From assembly GCA_034003725.1 (NCBI GenBank), contig JAVEYB010000002.1, positions 329,392 through 393,391 on the forward strand: DNA of 64,000 nt. The letters are read 5' to 3'. The notes beneath the pieces were generated by a model. That model saw only the letters and a program-made list of their open reading frames with translations. It did no database searches and was not told the origin of the DNA. Shown here one piece after another: positions 39,525 to 51,975 of the stretch (positions within the stretch are counted from its first letter, which is position 1; each line of letters begins with the position of its first letter). Both the position numbers and the translations under genes were made by a program. The stretch comes from Candidatus Zixiibacteriota bacterium. Its GTDB lineage: Bacteria; Zixibacteria; MSB-5A5; GN15; FEB-12.

Positions 39525-39643
39525 GAAATGCAGCCGCAAAGGGTACTTATCGAGACTTCGCTAACGGTAACAGATCCAGGTGTTGACGACACGTGCGTAT
39601 TCAAGCACGGGTTCGTCTATTACTGACCACGGGAAGGTGCCGT

Positions 39644-40564
39644 ATGCGGCCTGCGTTCAGGTTTGTCCCCACCGCGATTTACTCCGCGGTCCTGCTTCTC
39701 TGCAGTACTGCCACCGTATTCTCCCAGGTTCCGCGAGTGGTCGTTTCGGTCGGCGACACGAGCTTCGTCGCCGGAAGCCGGAATAACTACCTGTCCTTAC
39801 GCCTGTACAATTTCGAAGACAGCATAGCCGGCGTCGGACTGCAGTTGAAATCAGAGCGACCTGACCTCGTTACGTTCAACTTCAGTGGTGTCGCATTTGA
39901 CACCGTCGGCACCCTCGTCTCCGGATGGGAATACTGCGTGGTGGTAGACTCGCTGAGTAACGGCGTGTTCTGGCGACTGGCCGCAGCGGCCGATTTCTTC
40001 CCCGACCAGAACCGACCTCCGGCTATACCTCCGCAATCGGGAGGAATTGTCGTTCGCGTTCCCCTGAATACACCCCCGAATCCCGATACCTCCCTGCCAC
40101 TGATTGCCCCGATTACGATGTTCGGCCGTCAGGAGTTCTCTACAACTGGCGGTCAACTGATTGGCGTGGTAACCGACACAATCGTAGACACCAGCTACCT
40201 GGCATGCCAAAACTGGCTCGGTGACAGCTGCACGCTGTGGTTCGAGGTCGATCCCTCCATCAGTCCGTACGATTCAATCGCCTATGACAGCAGCCTGGTC
40301 GGCCAGATTGACACCACGGTGGTCGTATCAATCGGCGGTTCTGTGAGCCTCATTCCAACCCTGCAGTGTGATATCACGGCCGACAATTCTGTTGACCTGT
40401 CCGACCTGATCTGCCTTGTCAATTTCCTGTTCCTCGGCCAGACAAGCGGGGGTTGCGTGTATTTTGGTTACTGTGATCCCGACTCCAGCGGCGGTACCGA
40501 TCTGTCCGATCTGATCCAGCTCGTGAATTACCTGTTCCTCGGCGGGAATCAGCTTACCCATTGA
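39644..40564 (+). CDS. secreted dockerin-repeat protein with cohesin-like N-terminal region
   Basis: 306 aa from ATG 39644, which has GGGAAGG 6 nt upstream and opens a signal peptide (MRPAFRFVPTAIYSAVLLLC). A GTG at 39593 would only add 17 unlikely residues. The middle part begins VVVSVGDTSFVAGS and LRLYNFEDSIAGVGLQL, reminiscent of cohesin-type beta sandwiches. The C-terminus holds two dockerin-like repeats (DLSDLICLVNFLFLG, DLSDLIQLVNYLFLG) with calcium-loop Asp/Asn residues. If both calls hold, one small protein carries both kinds of docking partner. It stands just upstream of the four tandem paralogues. Confidence 0.7.
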   Translation: MRPAFRFVPTAIYSAVLLLCSTATVFSQVPRVVVSVGDTSFVAGSRNNYLSLRLYNFEDSIAGVGLQLKSERPDLVTFNFSGVAFDTVGTLVSGWEYCVVVDSLSNGVFWRLAAAADFFPDQNRPPAIPPQSGGIVVRVPLNTPPNPDTSLPLIAPITMFGRQEFSTTGGQLIGVVTDTIVDTSYLACQNWLGDSCTLWFEVDPSISPYDSIAYDSSLVGQIDTTVVVSIGGSVSLIPTLQCDITADNSVDLSDLICLVNFLFLGQTSGGCVYFGYCDPDSSGGTDLSDLIQLVNYLFLGGNQLTH

Positions 40565-40675: not shown

Positions 40676-43336
40676 ATGCCGCGATTGTCTTTCGGCTTGC
40701 TGGCAGCGCTCGTTATAGGCCTGTCCGCGGAAGCGACGGCGCGCACCATGCGACCCGCCGACAACAACCACGACAATCCCTACGCTGCAACCGCCGCGCC
40801 GGCGTATTGCGCGACAAATCATACGGTAGGTAAGCTGGTCCTCTCTGTCACCAACTACGGTGTATTTGCGGCCGAAGATGACGCTCTCATAACGACGGCC
40901 GACTGTTTTACCGGCAACCGGGTTCTCGCCTGCGAGTATCCCAAACGGTCCGGAACCCAGTACGCATTCTCCGGCGCCTTCTGGATCGGAGCGGTGGTCG
41001 GACGAGATACTCTTGTGTCGGTCGGTGCCGACGGGTGGCAAAACGCGCATGAGATGTTTCCCGATCAGTCTCCGTTCGGCGATATGCGCAAGAGATCCAT
41101 CATCGACCCGGAAGCGGCCGAGTTTGAGGGTGCCGTTTCCGAGCAGGATTTCATCGCCGTATACACCGATACGTACACTTCGGGCGTCGCTGGCCTGTCC
41201 AACGATTTTTTCGGACGTCCCCACATCCCGCTCCATGTCGAAGTCACCCAGCGCTCCTACGCGTGGTCGTACCCGTACGCCGATGATTTCGTGCTGTTTG
41301 ACTACTCGCTCCGCAATATCGGCTTCGAGCGGCTGTCCCGAGTGTACATGGGGATTTATGTGGATGCGGACTGCGCGCCCGGCGGCGGATTGGCCGATGC
41401 CACGCCGGGCGATCTCGGCGCAGGAGCAGAATTCCAGGATGACATCTGCGGATTCCTTGAAACTAGCGTTGAGACCCTTCGCGTCGGCAATACCGACGTT
41501 CCCTATATCGACACGGTCAACACCGCATGGATCGCCGATGTCAGCGGCGACCTTAACGACATCGGGCAAACCCCGCTGCCCGCTGTCACGTCCTGCCGTA
41601 TAGTCCGCACCCCGGCCGAAGAACTCGATGTTTCCTTCAACTGGTGGATCAGCCAGGGCGATGCGACTCAGGACTTCGGCCCCCAGGCCATCGCCACCTA
41701 TCGCAACTTTACGACCGGCGGCACGGGAACGCCTGAGGGCGACGTAAACAAGTACTATGTCCTCAGGAACCGCGAATTCGATTACGACCAGGTTTTCACC
41801 GGGCGCGTCGGTCCAAACGACCCGACCTGGCTGGTCCCCCCCGTCGATCTGGCGCAGGAATTTGCAAACGGCTATGACACGAGATTTCTCCTCTCGTTCG
41901 GACCATTCACGATCGACCCCGGGCAGACTCTGCCGATTTCGTTCGCTTATGTGGCCGGAGACAATTTTCACGTCTTGCCGAACAACGCCAACGTCAACCT
42001 CGGTGACTCCTACAACCCCGAGATATATTACGCCAACCTCAATTTCGATGAATTGTCGACCAATTCCCGCTGGGCGTCCTGGGTGTACGATAATCCCGGA
42101 GTCGACACGGACACGGATGGGTATCTGGGCAAGTTCCTGGTCGTCTGCGATGACACCACCGGGTACAGCATCGACACATCAGTGGTCGGTGGCGACACCC
42201 TGATCGACACGGTCGGCGTGGTCGGCACGCAGTGTGACACGGCCTACTACGAGGGCGACGGGGTGCCCGACTTCAGGGGCGCCTCCCCGCCTCCCGCGCC
42301 TGACGTTTGGCTCATCCCGGAGTTGGGCCGGATTCGCGTCCGGTTTAACGGTCGCCGGTCGGAAACGACACGTGACGTCTTCTCCCGTGAACTCGATTTC
42401 GAAGGGTACCGGGTGTACCTCGCCCGCGATGATCGTGAACCCAGCTACATGCTGCTCGCCGCCTATGATCGCGAGAATTACAACAAATTCGTTTATCAGT
42501 CGTCCGCCAACGAATACAAGCTGTTTGACTCACCGTTCACGCTTGACTCGCTGCGCACGTTGTACGCTGCGGGTGACCCAAACTGGGATCCGCTCGCCTT
42601 CACCCGCACCCGGCCATACTTCCTCGGCATCGACTCCGCCTTCGCCTTTGAGGCGCAGGGATACAACCAGTCGGTGTTCGGCGTGACCACGCCCATCAGA
42701 AAGGTTTATGACGACTGGGAGGATCTCGACCCTGCCGCGTATGGCATAAGTGTCCCCGATTCCGTACCCGACAGTCTGAGTTTCCTGCTGACCGACGACG
42801 GCTACTTCAAGTACTACGAGTATGAGTTTATTGTCGATGATTTGCTACCGACCGTGCCGTACTACGTAAACGTAACCGCAGCGGATTACGGATCACCCGC
42901 GTCAGGTCTCCCTTCCCTCGAGACGTCAAAGACCGTCAATTCCAGAAACGCCTACGCGCTGGAGACTTCGGCTAACGGCACGGCGGGTGAGCTTGATGTA
43001 TACGTGTGGCCGAATCCATATCGGGCGGATGCCGGATATCTCGAAACGGGCTTCGAAGGTCGCTTCAGTCCGTACGCACAGCCGATTCCTGATCGCGAAC
43101 GCCGGATTCACTTCGCCAATCTGCCGCCGAAATGCACGATCAGTATCTTCACACTCGACGGCGACCTCGTCCGGCAGTTCGAACACGATATGGATCCGTC
43201 CGATCCTAACGCCATGCACGATGAGTGGGACCTGATTACCCGAAATACCCAGATGGTAGTGTCGGGCATATATTATTTCACGGTGGAAGAACCGAACGGC
43301 CGCACTCAGATCGGCAAAATCGTCATCATTATGTGA
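40676..43336 (+). CDS. exported tandem paralogue 1 of unknown function
   Basis: 886 aa from ATG 40676 (AAGGAAAT upstream; signal peptide MPRLSFGLLAALVIGLSAEA). Upstream in-frame codons to 40580 are less likely. The family core contains PAYCATNHTVGKLVLSVTNYG, SGAFWIGAVVGRDTLVSVG, RSYAWSYPYADDFVLFDY, TGGTGTPEGDVNKYYVLRNR and YLLSFGPFTIDPGQTLP-type segments. The C-terminal about 115 residues (VYVWPNPYRADAGY, HFANLPPKCTISIFTLDGD, SGIYYFTVE, final KIVIIM) look like a variant of the Por/T9SS sorting domain. No enzymatic motif was found. First of four paralogues on the same strand. Confidence 0.75.
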   Translation: MPRLSFGLLAALVIGLSAEATARTMRPADNNHDNPYAATAAPAYCATNHTVGKLVLSVTNYGVFAAEDDALITTADCFTGNRVLACEYPKRSGTQYAFSGAFWIGAVVGRDTLVSVGADGWQNAHEMFPDQSPFGDMRKRSIIDPEAAEFEGAVSEQDFIAVYTDTYTSGVAGLSNDFFGRPHIPLHVEVTQRSYAWSYPYADDFVLFDYSLRNIGFERLSRVYMGIYVDADCAPGGGLADATPGDLGAGAEFQDDICGFLETSVETLRVGNTDVPYIDTVNTAWIADVSGDLNDIGQTPLPAVTSCRIVRTPAEELDVSFNWWISQGDATQDFGPQAIATYRNFTTGGTGTPEGDVNKYYVLRNREFDYDQVFTGRVGPNDPTWLVPPVDLAQEFANGYDTRFLLSFGPFTIDPGQTLPISFAYVAGDNFHVLPNNANVNLGDSYNPEIYYANLNFDELSTNSRWASWVYDNPGVDTDTDGYLGKFLVVCDDTTGYSIDTSVVGGDTLIDTVGVVGTQCDTAYYEGDGVPDFRGASPPPAPDVWLIPELGRIRVRFNGRRSETTRDVFSRELDFEGYRVYLARDDREPSYMLLAAYDRENYNKFVYQSSANEYKLFDSPFTLDSLRTLYAAGDPNWDPLAFTRTRPYFLGIDSAFAFEAQGYNQSVFGVTTPIRKVYDDWEDLDPAAYGISVPDSVPDSLSFLLTDDGYFKYYEYEFIVDDLLPTVPYYVNVTAADYGSPASGLPSLETSKTVNSRNAYALETSANGTAGELDVYVWPNPYRADAGYLETGFEGRFSPYAQPIPDRERRIHFANLPPKCTISIFTLDGDLVRQFEHDMDPSDPNAMHDEWDLITRNTQMVVSGIYYFTVEEPNGRTQIGKIVIIM

Positions 43337-43524: not shown

Positions 43525-46197
43525 GTGTCAAAATGGTTAGGATTTATCAGTGTTGTCGCTCTGGTGGCATTCGCATCGAGCAATTCACTGGGGCGCACGA
43601 AGTTGATTGAAGGAGGTTACCCGCACGATGATCCGTACATTGTTATGGCGGCGCCCGCATACTGCGCCACCAACCACAGTGTCGGTCGCCTCGTTCTGTC
43701 GGTAACGAACTACGGCGTGTTCGCTGCGGAAGAAGACGCCCTCATCACCACCGCTGACTGCTTCACCGGGTCCGCTGTACTCGCGTGTGAATATCCCAAA
43801 CGGTCGGGCTCGCAGTATTCTTATTCCGGGGCGTTCTGGATCGGCGCTGTCGTCGGCCGTGACACACTTGTGTCGGTCGGTGCCGACGGCTGGCAGCGCA
43901 CGCGAGAAATGTTCCCCGATGAATCCCCGTTCGGCGACATGATCCGTCGTTCGATCCTCGACCCGCTCGCAACGGAGTACGAGGGCGCTATCTCCGAACA
44001 GGACTTCATCGCCGTATATACGGACACCTATACCTCCGGTGTCTCCGGACTCGCGAATGACTTCTTTGGCAGGCCCCATATCCCCCTGTTTATCGAGGTC
44101 ACGCAGCGGTCCTATGCATGGTCGTATCCCTACGCCGATGACTTCGTCTTGTTCGACTACTCGATCAGGAATATCGGCAGTGAACGGCTTACGAAGGTGT
44201 ACATGGGCGTTTATGTCGATGCGGACGTCGGACCGGCAGGACAGGTCGATGACGTCGAAGGAGACCTGTCGCCGGGCGCACTCGAATTTCAGGACGACAT
44301 CTGCGGCTTCCGCGAAACCAATGTCGAAACCCTTCTGGTTGGAAGTGTCCCCGTTGAATACGTGGACACCGTCAATATCGCGTGGATTGCCGACGTCAGC
44401 GGCGATCTTGACGACCTCGGTCAGGTTCCGGTACCCGGCGTGACTGCGACGCGAATCGTCAGAACGCCTGCCGAGGAACTTGACGTGTCATTCAACTGGT
44501 GGATCGGAAGCGGCGATGCCACCCAGGACTTCGGCCCTCAGGCGATCCATACGTACCGCAACTACACGACCGGCGGAACGGGTACGCCGGAAGGCGACAT
44601 CAACAAATACCACGTGCTTCGCAACCGTGAGTTTGATTACGATCAGATCTTCACCGGCCGGATACCTCCGAATGATCCGGTCTGGCTCACTCCACCGGTC
44701 GCCCTCGCACAGGAGTTCGCCAACGGTTACGATACCCGCTACCTGCTGTCGTTCGGACCGTTTACGATCGATCCCGGTCAAACGTTACCCGTGTCCTTCG
44801 CGTACGTTGCAGGCGACGCCTTCCACCAGGATGCACAGAATGCTATCCGCAACCTGGGTGACGCCTATAATCCCGAGATCTATTACGAGAACCTCAACTT
44901 CGATAACCTCGCGACCAACTCCCGCTGGGCCTCCTGGGTATACGACAACCCCGGCGTCGATACCGACACCGACGGCTATGCGGGCAAGTTCCTCGAAGTG
45001 TGCGGTGACTCGATCGGCATCGATATCGACACCATCCGGGATACCAACGGCGTGATCATCGACATCGACACCAACGTCGTTTACCAGAACGGCTGCGATA
45101 CGGCCTACTATGCCGGCGACGGCGTGCCTGATTTCCGGGGCGCTTCTCCGCCTCCCGCACCCGATCTCTGGCTGATCCCGCAGGTCGGCAGCATCACGGT
45201 CCGGTTCAACGGCCGCCGATCCGAAACCACCCGCGACGTCTTCTCACGTGATCTGGATTTCGAGGGCTACAAGGTTTACATCGCCCGCGACGACCGGGAG
45301 CCCAGTTACACCCTGGTGGCTTCCTACGACCGGGAGAACTACAACAAGCTGGTCTACGATTACACTTCCCGTGAGTTCAAGCTGATCGACGTGCCCTATA
45401 CCCTGGACTCGCTGCAGACGATCTACGGCGGTGGCGATCCCGACTGGGATCCGGCCGTTTACACCCGGACCAATCCGTACCGGGGAGCGGCCGATTCGGC
45501 CTTTGCCTTTGAGGCTCAGGGGTTCAACCGGTCGCGCTTCGGGGTGGACACACCGATCCGGAAGGCATACGACAACTGGGAAGAGCTGTTCCCGGGCGAC
45601 TACGGGATCAGCAGCCCGGACTCGGTGCCGGACAGTCTGGCGTTTCTGCTGACGGAGGACGGGTATTTCAAGTACTACGAGTACGAGATTACGATCGACA
45701 ATCTGCTGCCCACGGTGCCGTGGTATGTGAACGTGACCTCGTCGGACTACGGGTCCCCGGCCTCGGGTCTGCCGGCGCTGGAGACGTCGAAGACGGTGAA
45801 CGCCAGAAACACCTATGCGCTGGAGTCGGTGCAGCGGGTGCAGGAGGCGGGGGCGAAAGTGTATGTGTGGCCGAACCCCTACCGGGCTGACGGCGAATAC
45901 CTGACGGAAGGATTTGAGGGGCGGTTCAGTCGCTTCTCGACGCCGATCCCGGACCGTGAGCGGCGGATACACTTCGCCAACTTGCCGCCCAAATGTACGA
46001 TCAAGATTTTCACCCTGGACGGCGATCTGGTGCGCCAGATCGATCACGACATGGATCCGGGTGATCCCAATGCCGTGCATGAGGAGTGGGACATGATCAC
46101 CCGAAACACCCAGATGGTGGTTTCCGGCATCTACTACTGGACGGTCGAAGTTCCCAACGGCGAAACTCAGATCGGCAAACTCGTCATCATCATGTAA
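43525..46197 (+). CDS. exported tandem paralogue 2 of unknown function
   Basis: 890 aa from GTG 43525, chosen because GGGAGGG ends 4 nt upstream. The signal peptide (VSKWLGFISVVALVAFASS) begins there, and the length then equals that of paralogue 3. The frame is open upstream to 43384. Same architecture as paralogue 1. The last 1,635 bp (from 44563 to the stop) appear identical to paralogue 3, while the first third differs at many positions. Codon choice in the 3' part (about 45400-46140) leans visibly more to G/C third bases than in paralogue 1. Confidence 0.75.
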   Translation: MSKWLGFISVVALVAFASSNSLGRTKLIEGGYPHDDPYIVMAAPAYCATNHSVGRLVLSVTNYGVFAAEEDALITTADCFTGSAVLACEYPKRSGSQYSYSGAFWIGAVVGRDTLVSVGADGWQRTREMFPDESPFGDMIRRSILDPLATEYEGAISEQDFIAVYTDTYTSGVSGLANDFFGRPHIPLFIEVTQRSYAWSYPYADDFVLFDYSIRNIGSERLTKVYMGVYVDADVGPAGQVDDVEGDLSPGALEFQDDICGFRETNVETLLVGSVPVEYVDTVNIAWIADVSGDLDDLGQVPVPGVTATRIVRTPAEELDVSFNWWIGSGDATQDFGPQAIHTYRNYTTGGTGTPEGDINKYHVLRNREFDYDQIFTGRIPPNDPVWLTPPVALAQEFANGYDTRYLLSFGPFTIDPGQTLPVSFAYVAGDAFHQDAQNAIRNLGDAYNPEIYYENLNFDNLATNSRWASWVYDNPGVDTDTDGYAGKFLEVCGDSIGIDIDTIRDTNGVIIDIDTNVVYQNGCDTAYYAGDGVPDFRGASPPPAPDLWLIPQVGSITVRFNGRRSETTRDVFSRDLDFEGYKVYIARDDREPSYTLVASYDRENYNKLVYDYTSREFKLIDVPYTLDSLQTIYGGGDPDWDPAVYTRTNPYRGAADSAFAFEAQGFNRSRFGVDTPIRKAYDNWEELFPGDYGISSPDSVPDSLAFLLTEDGYFKYYEYEITIDNLLPTVPWYVNVTSSDYGSPASGLPALETSKTVNARNTYALESVQRVQEAGAKVYVWPNPYRADGEYLTEGFEGRFSRFSTPIPDRERRIHFANLPPKCTIKIFTLDGDLVRQIDHDMDPGDPNAVHEEWDMITRNTQMVVSGIYYWTVEVPNGETQIGKLVIIM
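44563..46197 (+). repeat. 1,635-bp direct repeat, copy A
   Basis: Identical to 47628-49262 at every base in the stretches I compared (44563 to about 45000 line by line; beyond that I compared translations and several nucleotide stretches, including the 3' end). The constant offset of 3,065 bp shows no net indel. Identity breaks at 44562 (C versus T) upstream and directly after the TAA stop downstream. Confidence 0.85.
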
Positions 46198-46589
46198 AGT
46201 CTGCGCAGTGCGTGCGGCTGCCGGCTTAATGCCGTCAGCCGCACCCGCCTTCCTCCCTATCTCCCTGTGCTACGGCGTCTTGTCTGGTTGAACAAGTTCC
46301 CCCGCGGGAATCCTGAGACACAAGAAGGAGACCATTTCGCATTAGACAATTCGCCCCGCAGCACAGTCTATAATCTATCGAATGAGACAGTACAGGTATG
46401 CCCGACGGGCGCGATGGTAGACGCTGGTTTTCGGGTGACAGAACCATGTGCGCGCCAACAGATTGGCCCCCGTCGGTGGAGCTAATCCGTTGAGGCATTT
46501 GTGCCTTGACAGGGACAACGGTAACCCGCATATTTCGTGCTTTAGGTTTGGGAAAAGTTACTAGTCCATAGAGATAGAAGGAAGATACA
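46198..46589 (+). promoter_or_regulatory. 392-nt gap between paralogues 2 and 3 with hairpin and promoter
   Basis: A long hairpin at 46212-46244 (14-nt arms with one mismatch, loop TTAAT) lies 15 nt after the stop but has no T-run, so it is a weak terminator candidate. TTGACA at 46506-46511 and CATATT at 46529-46534, spaced exactly 17 nt, form a plausible promoter for paralogue 3. AGAAGGAAG precedes its GTG. Nothing coding is seen in between. Confidence 0.45.
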
Positions 46590-49262
46590 GTGAGAAATCG
46601 GGTAACGACGTTCTGGCTTCTTGTGTTGGTCGTTCTATTGCCGGCCTCGCTAATGGCTCGGACCAAGCTGGTTGAGAACGGTCCCTCCAACGATGACCCT
46701 TACATTTCACTTGCCGCACCCGCTTATTGCGCTACCAATCACAATGTCGGCCGCCTCGTTCTCTCCGTGACAAACTATGGCATATTCGCTGCGGAAGGCG
46801 ACGCGTTGATTACGGAATCCGACTGCTTCACCGGAGCGCGCGTTTCAGCCTGCGAGTATCCAAAACGCTCCGGTACCGTCTACTCCTTCTCGGGGGCGTT
46901 CTGGATCGGTGCTGTCGTCGGCCGTGATACGCTCGTGTCGGTCGGCGCCGACGGCTGGCAGACGACAAACGAAATGTTTCCCGATGAATCCCCGTTCGGT
47001 AACATGATTCGGCGTTCTATTATTGATCCTGAGTCCCCGGATTACGAGGGCGCTATCTCCGAACAGGACTTCATCGCCGTGTACACTGACACCTATACCT
47101 CCGGCGTATCCGGACTTGACAACGATTTTTTCGGTCGCCCCCACATTCCGCTGAATATTGAAGTTACGCAGCGGTCCTACGCATGGTCGTACCCCTACGC
47201 CGATGATTTCGTGCTGTTTGATTACTCGATCAGGAACATCGGCGTACAACGACTGACGAAAGTCTACATGGGAATGTACGTTGACGCTGACGTTGGTCCG
47301 GGCGGCGATCAGCTCAGCACCACCCCCGGTGACTTTGGCGCCGGCGGTGAGTTTGCCGACGACATCTGCGGTTTCCGCGAGACCAGTCTTGAGACGCTTC
47401 GTGTCGGCAACGTCGACGTCGAGTATATCGATACGGTCAACATCGCATGGATCGCGGACGTCACAGGCGACCTCAATGATCTCGGTCAGGTGGCAGTGCC
47501 GGCAGTGACAGCTACCCGCATTGTTCGTACGCCTGCCGAGGAGCTCGACGTGTCATTCAACTGGTGGATCGGCAACGGCGATCCGACTCAGGACTTCGGC
47601 CCTCAGGCGATCCAAACGTACCGCAATTACACGACCGGCGGAACGGGTACGCCGGAAGGCGACATCAACAAATACCACGTGCTTCGCAACCGTGAGTTTG
47701 ATTACGATCAGATCTTCACCGGCCGGATACCTCCGAATGATCCGGTCTGGCTCACTCCACCGGTCGCCCTCGCACAGGAGTTCGCCAACGGTTACGATAC
47801 CCGCTACCTGCTGTCGTTCGGACCGTTTACGATCGATCCCGGTCAAACGTTACCCGTGTCCTTCGCGTACGTTGCAGGCGACGCCTTCCACCAGGATGCA
47901 CAGAATGCTATCCGCAACCTGGGTGACGCCTATAATCCCGAGATCTATTACGAGAACCTCAACTTCGATAACCTCGCGACCAACTCCCGCTGGGCCTCCT
48001 GGGTATACGACAACCCCGGCGTCGATACCGACACCGACGGCTATGCGGGCAAGTTCCTCGAAGTGTGCGGTGACTCGATCGGCATCGATATCGACACCAT
48101 CCGGGATACCAACGGCGTGATCATCGACATCGACACCAACGTCGTTTACCAGAACGGCTGCGATACGGCCTACTATGCCGGCGACGGCGTGCCTGATTTC
48201 CGGGGCGCTTCTCCGCCTCCCGCACCCGATCTCTGGCTGATCCCGCAGGTCGGCAGCATCACGGTCCGGTTCAACGGCCGCCGATCCGAAACCACCCGCG
48301 ACGTCTTCTCACGTGATCTGGATTTCGAGGGCTACAAGGTTTACATCGCCCGCGACGACCGGGAGCCCAGTTACACCCTGGTGGCTTCCTACGACCGGGA
48401 GAACTACAACAAGCTGGTCTACGATTACACTTCCCGTGAGTTCAAGCTGATCGACGTGCCCTATACCCTGGACTCGCTGCAGACGATCTACGGCGGTGGC
48501 GATCCCGACTGGGATCCGGCCGTTTACACCCGGACCAATCCGTACCGGGGAGCGGCCGATTCGGCCTTTGCCTTTGAGGCTCAGGGGTTCAACCGGTCGC
48601 GCTTCGGGGTGGACACACCGATCCGGAAGGCATACGACAACTGGGAAGAGCTGTTCCCGGGCGACTACGGGATCAGCAGCCCGGACTCGGTGCCGGACAG
48701 TCTGGCGTTTCTGCTGACGGAGGACGGGTATTTCAAGTACTACGAGTACGAGATTACGATCGACAATCTGCTGCCCACGGTGCCGTGGTATGTGAACGTG
48801 ACCTCGTCGGACTACGGGTCCCCGGCCTCGGGTCTGCCGGCGCTGGAGACGTCGAAGACGGTGAACGCCAGAAACACCTATGCGCTGGAGTCGGTGCAGC
48901 GGGTGCAGGAGGCGGGGGCGAAAGTGTATGTGTGGCCGAACCCCTACCGGGCTGACGGCGAATACCTGACGGAAGGATTTGAGGGGCGGTTCAGTCGCTT
49001 CTCGACGCCGATCCCGGACCGTGAGCGGCGGATACACTTCGCCAACTTGCCGCCCAAATGTACGATCAAGATTTTCACCCTGGACGGCGATCTGGTGCGC
49101 CAGATCGATCACGACATGGATCCGGGTGATCCCAATGCCGTGCATGAGGAGTGGGACATGATCACCCGAAACACCCAGATGGTGGTTTCCGGCATCTACT
49201 ACTGGACGGTCGAAGTTCCCAACGGCGAAACTCAGATCGGCAAACTCGTCATCATCATGTAA
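46590..49262 (+). CDS. exported tandem paralogue 3 of unknown function
   Basis: 890 aa from GTG 46590 (AGAAGGAAG upstream; signal peptide MRNRVTTFWLLVLVVLLPASLMA). The N-terminal third resembles paralogue 2 with scattered differences. From residue about 347 onward the protein is the same as paralogue 2. It has the variant C-terminal tail (VYVWPNPYRADGEY, HFANLPPKCTIKIFTLDGD, SGIYYWTVE, final KLVIIM). Own promoter and own terminator, so expression may be separate from the other copies. Function unknown. Confidence 0.75.
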   Translation: MRNRVTTFWLLVLVVLLPASLMARTKLVENGPSNDDPYISLAAPAYCATNHNVGRLVLSVTNYGIFAAEGDALITESDCFTGARVSACEYPKRSGTVYSFSGAFWIGAVVGRDTLVSVGADGWQTTNEMFPDESPFGNMIRRSIIDPESPDYEGAISEQDFIAVYTDTYTSGVSGLDNDFFGRPHIPLNIEVTQRSYAWSYPYADDFVLFDYSIRNIGVQRLTKVYMGMYVDADVGPGGDQLSTTPGDFGAGGEFADDICGFRETSLETLRVGNVDVEYIDTVNIAWIADVTGDLNDLGQVAVPAVTATRIVRTPAEELDVSFNWWIGNGDPTQDFGPQAIQTYRNYTTGGTGTPEGDINKYHVLRNREFDYDQIFTGRIPPNDPVWLTPPVALAQEFANGYDTRYLLSFGPFTIDPGQTLPVSFAYVAGDAFHQDAQNAIRNLGDAYNPEIYYENLNFDNLATNSRWASWVYDNPGVDTDTDGYAGKFLEVCGDSIGIDIDTIRDTNGVIIDIDTNVVYQNGCDTAYYAGDGVPDFRGASPPPAPDLWLIPQVGSITVRFNGRRSETTRDVFSRDLDFEGYKVYIARDDREPSYTLVASYDRENYNKLVYDYTSREFKLIDVPYTLDSLQTIYGGGDPDWDPAVYTRTNPYRGAADSAFAFEAQGFNRSRFGVDTPIRKAYDNWEELFPGDYGISSPDSVPDSLAFLLTEDGYFKYYEYEITIDNLLPTVPWYVNVTSSDYGSPASGLPALETSKTVNARNTYALESVQRVQEAGAKVYVWPNPYRADGEYLTEGFEGRFSRFSTPIPDRERRIHFANLPPKCTIKIFTLDGDLVRQIDHDMDPGDPNAVHEEWDMITRNTQMVVSGIYYWTVEVPNGETQIGKLVIIM
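47628..49262 (+). repeat. 1,635-bp direct repeat, copy B
   Basis: Second copy of the block at 44563-46197, in the same orientation and reading frame. The copies are separated by 1,430 bp of non-identical sequence. The ends coincide with a codon within the gene and with the stop codon, not with inverted repeats or target-site duplications. This argues against an insertion sequence. Confidence 0.85.
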
Positions 49263-49284: not shown

Positions 49285-49324
49285 AAAGGCCGCCGACAGC
49301 TCGATCTGATCGGCGGCCTTTTCG
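49285..49324 (+). terminator. intrinsic terminator after paralogue 3
   Basis: AAAGGCCGCCGA (49285-49296) pairs perfectly with TCGGCGGCCTTT (49310-49321), 13-nt loop, then TTC. It separates paralogue 3 from paralogue 4. Confidence 0.8.
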
Positions 49325-49335
49325 GTAAGGTCACT

Positions 49336-51975
49336 ATGGCGCGCACTATATCATATCCGTCACGTCGTACTCCATGTACGATCGCGAGTTTTCTGGCCGT
49401 ATCAGTCCTGCTGTGCGGCCTTCCTCTCGACCTTGTGGCCCGGTCGAATACGCCACTCTCGCGTGAGGAAGCCATCAGTCGACATCTCGAACACGCCGCG
49501 ACTGCCCGACCCGTCGTGCTCTACACGGCGCACAACAGGGGCAATATCCAGCTGGCGATTGCCAACAACGGCACCTTCGGTACCTACGGACAGGATATCC
49601 CTGATCCCTTCACAGGTCAACGGATCCCCTCCTGCGTGTATCCAAAAAACAGCGATCATGTCTATCTTTGGGTGGGTGCGTTCTGGATCGGAGCCGTCGT
49701 GGGGCGGGACACGCTCGTTTCGGTGGGAACTGAAGACTTCTATGTCACGCAGGAATTCTGGCCCGATCCTCCCCCCTTCGGAGAGTTCGACTACAAATCC
49801 ATAGACGTCAACAGCCAGTTTTACGATCCCAACGCGTACTCCGAAGAAGACATCTTGTGCCGGTATACCGATACGGTAACTGACCCATCGCTGGTTTCCG
49901 CCGATCCCCTTACCAACATCGCGCACCGGCCGCTCGGGATTGAAGTCACGCAGCGGTCCATGGCGTGGAGCTATGAGTACGCTGACGACTTCATCCTGTT
50001 CGACTACCAGATTCGCAATATCGGTCAGCAACGGCTCAATCGCGTTTATATGGGGATCTGGATAGACGGTGACGTGTGGCATGTCTCGCGCAACGGCCCC
50101 GAGGGGTGGAACGACGATATCGTCGGGTTTCTGCGCGATCACCCCGCTCCGGAAGGCTGCGGTTTCCTCGATACGGTGAATGTCGCATACACCGCTGACA
50201 ACGACGGCGACCCCGACGGCGCCAGCTGGGACTACCGCTCGCCGCGAGGCGTTGTCGGAGCGCGGGTCGTAAGAACGCCGTCGGACTCGCTCGACTATTC
50301 CTACAACTGGTGGATCATCAACTACTCGGATCCCAGCCGTGACTTCGGCCCGCGGATGCTGAGCGCGCCGGGTGATCCGTACTTCGATTTTGGCACCTCC
50401 CGACTTGGCACACCCGAGGGAGACGTCAACAAGTATTACGTGCTCAGCCACCGGGAGTTCGATTACGACCTGATCACCACGGCCACGAACCACGAGGGCG
50501 AGGGGTATCGCCCCCCTCCTCCGGAAGCCGAAGACTACGCACGGGGATACGACACGCGATACCTGCTGTCTTTCGGGCCCTTCACTATAGACCCCGGGCA
50601 GACTCTGCCCATTTCTCTCGCCTGGGTTGCGGGTGAAAACCTGCATCGCCAGCCCCAGGACTTTGAACGGCTGTTTGATCCCGATTTCCCTCAGTTCTTC
50701 TATGAGGCACTGGACTTTTCGAGCCTCGCCTTGAACTCGCGCTGGGCGTCGTGGGTGTACGACAACCCTGGCCGTGATACCGACGGCGACGGGTACGCAG
50801 GTAAATTCCGGGTCTGTGCGTTCGACTCACTGATCGATCATATCGATACCACGTTCGTGGGCGGCAACCCGGTCGTTGACACGATTTACCGATACACCCG
50901 GGCTGACACCAGTTACTATGAGGGTGATGGTGTACCGGACTTCGCGGGGGCCGGTCCACCCCCCGCGCCGCGCCTGCGTGTGGTCCCGGAAAGCGGTAGA
51001 CTCACGATCCGATGGAATGGCTACCGATCCGAAACGACAAAGGACGTATTCCTCGGTGAAATCGACTTCGAAGGTTATCGCGTCTATGTCGGCCTCGATG
51101 ATCGGCTCACCAGTTTCACGCTGCTCCAGTCTTACGACCGCGAGGACTACAATCGCTACCGGTACGGTGAACTGCCCGACGGCAGACCCGGCTGGGTGCT
51201 CGATGAAGTGCCGTTTACGATCGACTCGCTAAGACTGATGTTCGATGACCCCTCGTTCGACCCGCTGGCATACACGCAGGCACGGCCCTTTGCCTGGGAA
51301 GGCGAGTACTACTCCTTCACCCGGCAGGACTACAACCAGTCCGACCTCACCCGCCCCGACGGCATTCGAAAGGTCTATCCCGATGCCCCTCCCCCGGACA
51401 CCGACACCTCGTCATGGACCGACGACGACGTCACACTCGATTACGGTGATCCGCTTCCAAAGTACTACGAATACGAATACGTGATAGAGAACCTCCTTCC
51501 GACCATCCCTTATCACGTGGCGGTAACGGCGTTCGATTACGGTTCCCCCGCTTCGGGCCTGCCGGCTCTCGAAACCAATCCCACCAACAACATGATCCGT
51601 GAATACCCACAGACGCCCGCCGACACCGTTGAGAGGTACGGTCTCGACGTATACGTCTACCCCAACCCGTATGTCGGTGACGGCGAGTATTCGCGGTTGG
51701 GGTTCGAAAACCGTGACCGCAGCCGGGCTCCGGAACGGGCACGGTTGATCCATTTCGCGAATCTGCCGCGCGTGTGCAACATTTCGATTTTCTCTCTGGA
51801 CGGAGACCTGGTTCGGGAGATTGCGCATAATTACCCCGGTGGAGGTCCGGAGTCGATGCATGCGACCTGGGATTTGATCACACGCAATACCCAGGCGGTG
51901 GTCTCAGCGATATACTATTGGGTGGTGGAGTCCGCGGATCGTACGCAGATGGGTAAGCTAGTGATTGTTAAGTGA
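49336..51975 (+). CDS. exported tandem paralogue 4 of unknown function (divergent)
   Basis: 879 aa. Signal peptide about 15-35. It keeps the family landmarks but with clear divergence: VGAFWIGAVVGRDTLVSVG, RSMAWSYEYADDFILFDYQIRNIG, EGDVNKYYVLSHREFDYD, YLLSFGPFTIDPGQTLPI, SRWASWVYDNPGRDTD and GDGVPDFAGAGPPPAP. The N-terminal CATNH segment is replaced by TAHNRGNIQLAIANNG. The C-terminal tail is VYVYPNPYVGDGEY, HFANLPRVCNISIFSLDGD, AIYYWVVE, ending KLVIVK, closer to the canonical LVK ending. The last 18 nt overlap the convergent MFS gene. Function unknown. Confidence 0.75.
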   Translation: MARTISYPSRRTPCTIASFLAVSVLLCGLPLDLVARSNTPLSREEAISRHLEHAATARPVVLYTAHNRGNIQLAIANNGTFGTYGQDIPDPFTGQRIPSCVYPKNSDHVYLWVGAFWIGAVVGRDTLVSVGTEDFYVTQEFWPDPPPFGEFDYKSIDVNSQFYDPNAYSEEDILCRYTDTVTDPSLVSADPLTNIAHRPLGIEVTQRSMAWSYEYADDFILFDYQIRNIGQQRLNRVYMGIWIDGDVWHVSRNGPEGWNDDIVGFLRDHPAPEGCGFLDTVNVAYTADNDGDPDGASWDYRSPRGVVGARVVRTPSDSLDYSYNWWIINYSDPSRDFGPRMLSAPGDPYFDFGTSRLGTPEGDVNKYYVLSHREFDYDLITTATNHEGEGYRPPPPEAEDYARGYDTRYLLSFGPFTIDPGQTLPISLAWVAGENLHRQPQDFERLFDPDFPQFFYEALDFSSLALNSRWASWVYDNPGRDTDGDGYAGKFRVCAFDSLIDHIDTTFVGGNPVVDTIYRYTRADTSYYEGDGVPDFAGAGPPPAPRLRVVPESGRLTIRWNGYRSETTKDVFLGEIDFEGYRVYVGLDDRLTSFTLLQSYDREDYNRYRYGELPDGRPGWVLDEVPFTIDSLRLMFDDPSFDPLAYTQARPFAWEGEYYSFTRQDYNQSDLTRPDGIRKVYPDAPPPDTDTSSWTDDDVTLDYGDPLPKYYEYEYVIENLLPTIPYHVAVTAFDYGSPASGLPALETNPTNNMIREYPQTPADTVERYGLDVYVYPNPYVGDGEYSRLGFENRDRSRAPERARLIHFANLPRVCNISIFSLDGDLVREIAHNYPGGGPESMHATWDLITRNTQAVVSAIYYWVVESADRTQMGKLVIVK

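What the first reader, a model, noticed from the sequence alone, without database searches (positions are those of the whole stretch)
44563..49262. Two tandem surface-protein genes share an apparently identical 1,635-bp 3' block
Paralogues 2 and 3 have clearly diverged 5' thirds, then become identical from 44563/47628 to the stop codon. No indel is seen, and identity ends exactly at TAA. Synonymous sites are identical too. This points to very recent gene conversion or partial duplication that keeps the C-terminal two-thirds uniform while the N-terminal part varies, a layout known from variable surface proteins. An assembly artefact must be excluded.
Basis: partly seen in the sequence, partly recalled or inferred. 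Interest (0 to 1): 0.8.

Follow-up and report, generated by a model that had tools for sequence, protein, structure and literature searches.

The report
Gene conversion between tandem secreted-protein genes
Two neighbouring genes for large secreted proteins in an uncultured Zixibacteria-type bacterium share an identical back half, most likely because one gene overwrote the end of the other by ordinary recombination, although the assembly method means that the exact identity is not proven.

Summary
The 5' parts are old: about 75% nucleotide identity and saturated synonymous divergence (dS ~1.5), against 0 differences at 387 synonymous sites in the block. Genus relatives have three genes here; the window has four, gene 2 being the extra one. 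Protein trees put gene 2's block with gene 3 and its orthologue (support 100), but its 5' part is not closest to gene 3. This fits recent one-sided gene conversion, probably gene 3 into gene 2, ending at the stop codon because homology ends there.

Similar, weaker tracts recur between neighbouring paralogues in the family (7/125 within genomes versus 4/500 between). The 'variable surface protein' reading is not supported: the 5' part is under strong purifying selection (dN/dS 0.08) and no further copy of the block is found.

Caveat: the genome is a k=127 short-read assembly (many contig ends share exactly 127 bp; one begins with an Illumina adapter remnant). Both copies are probably one graph edge printed twice. 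Near-identity is likely real; exactness is unproven.

The parts
40676..43336 (+). gene 1 (W1), orthologue of gene A in two genus relatives
   Evidence: ORF, probable ATG start with upstream GGAAGGA; 85.6%/81.9% aa identity (5'/3' part) to G002 gene A
43525..46197 (+). gene 2 (W2), the extra gene, probable recipient of the conversion; likely GTG start at 43525, 890 aa
   Evidence: ORF; GTG preceded by GGGAGGGC; no counterpart in G001 or G002
44563..46197 (+). identical block, copy 1 (C-terminal 544 codons plus stop of gene 2)
   Evidence: exact match to 47628-49262
44464..44562 (+). shoulder of raised identity (90 of 99 bases) before the block
   Evidence: higher than orthologue comparisons over the same stretch
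46198..46589 (+). unique intergenic DNA between genes 2 and 3, with a promoter-like site at 46506-46534; its 3' part is conserved upstream of gene B in both relatives
   Evidence: blastn of intergenic stretches, 82% over 242 bp to G002 and 79% over 172 bp to G001; promoter scan
46590..49262 (+). gene 3 (W3), orthologue of gene B, probable donor
   Evidence: ORF; 85.7%/82.2% aa identity to G002 gene B; conserved upstream DNA
47628..49262 (+). identical block, copy 2
   Evidence: exact match to 44563-46197
49336..51975 (+). gene 4 (W4), orthologue of gene C, about 52% aa identity to the block of gene 3; preceded by a hairpin ending in CCTTTTCGG at about 49285-49325
   Evidence: ORF; 84-86% aa to G002 gene C; hairpin read from sequence

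Best explanation
A recent, one-sided gene conversion between two neighbouring paralogues replaced the last 1,635 bp of one with the copy of the other, most likely gene 3 (donor) into gene 2 (recipient). The tract begins in a well-conserved stretch of the genes and runs to the stop codon, where homology between the paralogues ends, so the exact end at TAA needs no special mechanism. The genes encode proteins with a signal-peptide-like start whose last ~80 residues resemble, below curated cut-offs, the type IX secretion sorting domain. The host genome carries SprA, C25 peptidases and about 40 such tails over cut-off, so they are probably secreted or surface proteins. Shown: the identity as assembled, the sharp contrast with the 5' part, the gene's absence from two relatives, the tree conflict, and similar tracts in the family. 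Inferred: RecA-type homologous recombination, the direction, and secretion.
For: Exact block with sharp edges. Synonymous divergence saturated in the 5' part (dS ~1.55) and zero in the block. Synteny and orthology: relatives have genes A, B, C; W1~A, W3~B, W4~C, W2 extra. Protein trees: 3' block W2+W3 with G002 gene B at support 100, 5' part does not join W2 to W3. No homology between intergenic sequences after the stops, so homology ends at TAA. Localised runs of identical synonymous codons: 7/125 within-genome pairs at p<0.01 (the window pair among them) versus 4/500 between-genome pairs (Fisher p 0.002), 6 of the 7 between neighbours, including 3 pairs in the single-contig genome G019. T9SS markers in the genome.
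Against: The genome is a short-read k=127 assembly. Two copies of a 1.6-kb repeat inside one contig are probably one graph edge traversed twice, so zero differences is partly by construction. The direction rests on synteny and a tree whose 5' part is poorly resolved around W2 (supports 50-53). The recurrence test counts 3 pairs from one genome and uses random, on average more diverged between-genome pairs as control, so it is suggestive. Sorting-domain scores are below cut-off.
Confidence: 0.78

Rival explanations
1. Assembly effect: the two 3' halves differ by some percent, or gene 2's own middle part was dropped, and the assembler printed one consensus edge twice when it walked a simple loop (gene 2 5' part, block, intergenic plus gene 3 5' part, block, gene 4).
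For: Many contig ends share exactly 127 bp and one contig begins with an Illumina adapter remnant; 127 is the largest k in SPAdes, and SPAdes leaves overlaps at contig ends (PMC5481147). Other repeats of the genome break contigs.
Against: If it is such a graph, all four junctions of the block must exist as real 127-mers, and the only path using them in one chromosome is the printed one. Bubbles of ~25% divergence are not normally collapsed (own knowledge). A 3' bias of identity is also seen in a single-contig relative.
Confidence: 0.15
2. Recent partial tandem duplication or unequal crossing-over created gene 2's 3' half, rather than conversion of an existing full gene.
For: The genes are direct tandem paralogues with one more copy than in relatives.
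Against: Unequal crossing-over would copy the DNA downstream of the stop as well; identity stops at TAA and the downstream sequences share nothing. Gene 2's 5' part and upstream DNA are not recent copies.
Confidence: 0.05
3. A surface-variation system in which conversion exchanges cassettes to vary the N-terminal part while the C-terminal part is kept uniform.
For: Secreted-type proteins, 5' divergent, 3' uniform.
Against: 5' part dN/dS 0.08, divergence equal to orthologues; only two copies of the block in the genome and no silent cassette found; gene 1 and gene 4 orthologues are evenly diverged along their length.
Confidence: 0.02

Closest known systems
Gene conversion / concerted evolution of bacterial paralogues (for example the prokaryotic cases in PMC6053082)
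   Same: Paralogues in one genome more alike than orthologues, over a bounded tract, with synonymous sites homogenised
   Different: Here a single partial tract in an uncharacterised secreted-protein family of an uncultured phylum; long-lasting homogenisation is not shown for the window pair
Helicobacter pylori bab outer-membrane adhesin paralogues (gene conversion between babA and babB; from general knowledge, lead papers)
   Same: Paralogous envelope-protein genes exchanging sequence by conversion
   Different: No evidence here of expression switching, host pressure or phase variation; 5' parts are under purifying selection
Type IX secretion cargo with C-terminal sorting domain (TIGR04183 / PF18962)
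   Same: N-terminal signal-like segment, C-terminal ~80 residues with a weak resemblance, host genome carries T9SS markers
   Different: Scores of these proteins lie below the curated cut-offs

Membership tests
Gene conversion between paralogues | Bounded tract of high identity between paralogues whose flanks are old, synonymous sites included | tested here: met
   dS ~1.55 outside, 0 of 387 synonymous sites inside; maximal-segment permutation p 0.001
Gene conversion between paralogues | Tree conflict between tract and flank | tested here: met
   3' tree W2+W3 support 100 within gene B clade; 5' tree does not join them, with weak support for W2's exact place
Gene conversion between paralogues | Tract real in the organism, not an assembly product | tested here: inconclusive
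   k=127 short-read assembly; no reads available
Antigenic-variation system by gene conversion | Silent donor cassettes in the genome | tested here: not met
   Whole-genome DNA search finds the block only twice, next hit 72% in gene 1
Antigenic-variation system by gene conversion | Diversifying or relaxed selection on the variable part | tested here: not met
   5' part dN/dS 0.08 for W2-W3
Type IX secretion cargo (Por_Secre_tail, TIGR04183/PF18962) | C-terminal sorting domain above the curated cut-off | tested here: not met
   W1 11.9 bits against 23 for TIGR04183; best Pfam member E 0.017
Type IX secretion cargo (Por_Secre_tail, TIGR04183/PF18962) | Host has a T9SS | tested here: met
   SprA_N, five C25 peptidases and about 40 tails over cut-off in the genome; other T9SS parts not searched

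The most novel reading that the evidence does not exclude
Tandem arrays of this secreted-protein family in Zixibacteria undergo recurrent conversion biased to the middle and 3' parts, which keeps the C-terminal half including the export tail uniform while N-terminal parts diverge to separate roles. None of the 7 detected tracts lies in the N-terminal third, but the number is small and lower 5' identity alone could explain it.
Probability: 0.2. Interest if true: 0.4.

Novelty: new member of a known kind. Interest (0 to 1): 0.22.

Why it matters
It is a clean example of gene conversion between tandem genes for an uncharacterised secreted-protein family found in all 54 genomes of this bacterial family examined. 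It also shows that perfect repeats inside a contig of a short-read metagenome assembly carry less information than they seem to. Biologically it is ordinary.

Tried and rejected
A first permutation test with a fixed 25-codon window could not detect the window pair, because its maximum saturates; it was replaced by a maximal-segment test. Direction of conversion from divergence to G002/G001 was tried and is not resolvable, since synonymous sites are saturated. Fold search of the AlphaFold model (mean pLDDT 65.7) gave only weak matches of a beta-supersandwich type (GH116 and phosphorylase domains, YidC periplasmic domain; TM by query at most 0.20), not used for function. Pfam and NCBIfam gave no family above cut-off. 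The sequence search of solved structures gave nothing meaningful. No other genome of the same species was available for strain comparison.

Full report
Observation. The window carries four tandem paralogues on the + strand: W1 (40676-43336), W2 (probable start 43525, stop 46197), W3 (46590-49262) and W4 (49336-51975). Comparison at offset 3065 gives a single exact block, 44563-46197 = 47628-49262, 1635 bp without mismatch or indel. It starts in the middle of the genes (codon 347 of W3) and ends on the last base of both TAA stops. Before it lies a 99-bp shoulder with 9 differences, and upstream of that the genes are about 75% identical. No other exact repeat of 100 bp or more exists in the window, and the genome holds the block only twice.

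Is it more than constraint? Yes. In the 5' part W2 and W3 differ at 150 of 230 synonymous sites (dS about 1.55), against 0 of 387 in the block. Orthologue pairs across species (W1-G002 A, W3-G002 B, W4-G002 C) show similar saturated divergence in both parts. Nonsynonymous change in the 5' part is low (dN/dS 0.08), so the N-terminal part is conserved by selection rather than diversified.

Relatives. W1, W3 and W4 are the orthologues of A, B and C; W2 is the extra gene. The 3' part of the intergenic stretch upstream of W3 is conserved upstream of gene B in both relatives. In protein trees the shared block sits with G002 gene B (support 100), while the 5' part of W2 does not join W3, its exact place being weakly supported. 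This favours W3 as donor and W2 as recipient. The exact end at the stop codon is explained by the lack of homology between the downstream intergenic sequences. Unequal crossing-over would have copied DNA beyond the stop.

Recurrence. The family is in all 54 genomes of the taxonomic family searched, often in tandem arrays, up to eight or nine in G019. Using runs of identical synonymous codons at conserved residues with permutations, 7 of 125 within-genome pairs have a significant tract (p<0.01), the window pair among them, against 4 of 500 random between-genome pairs (Fisher p 0.002). Six of the seven are between neighbours. Three are in G019, assembled as one contig, and one in G020. Controls were random pairs, so this is suggestive rather than final.

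Assembly. Of the 70 contig ends of this genome, many share exactly 127 bp with another end, and contig C11 begins with an Illumina adapter remnant. 127 is the largest k in SPAdes, whose contigs overlap at their ends (PMC5481147). The genome is thus a short-read de Bruijn assembly. A 1,635-bp exact repeat is longer than any such read; it most likely stayed inside the contig because the graph is a simple loop with one possible path (inference). Then both printed copies are the same edge, small differences could have been merged, and the number of loop copies could be higher than two. A gene 2 with a clearly diverged 3' half is unlikely but not excluded.

Protein. Pfam finds no family; the C-terminus weakly resembles T9SS sorting domains below cut-off. 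The genome has SprA, five C25 peptidases and about 40 sorting tails over cut-off, so T9SS export is plausible. The fold model is of modest confidence.

Verdict. An ordinary process in an uncharacterised family.

Noticed in passing
G000:C11 start (L182:1-30): Contig begins with TTCCATACACGACGCTCTTCCGATCT, an Illumina adapter remnant, followed by a tandem repeat of about 50 bp; related repeats end contigs C3 and C9.
   Followed up: partly
L076 and L096 (G019:C1:1157000-1178330): Eight to nine tandem copies of the same gene family, two neighbours 85% identical with a graded rise of identity towards the 3' end.
   Followed up: partly
L021 (G000:C11:120221-122821): A further family member in the same genome has one in-frame TAG; it may be a pseudogene or contain a sequencing error near the contig end.
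   Followed up: no
L056 (G001:C86): Genes A and B of G001 are closer to each other than to the A and B genes of the other two genomes in both halves (support 100), which suggests older homogenisation or a separate duplication.
   Followed up: partly
39593-40564: Small secreted-type gene with a dockerin-like C-terminal repeat (DNSVDLSDLICLVNFLF and a second similar unit), with an ORF of like size at the same place in both relatives; no Pfam or NCBIfam match.
   Followed up: no
G000 contigs C4, C5, C11, C15, C22 ends: Ends share a multi-copy sequence (CTGGTTCGCTTCCACGGCATATCCTGG...), probably the edge of a mobile element that breaks the assembly.
   Followed up: no
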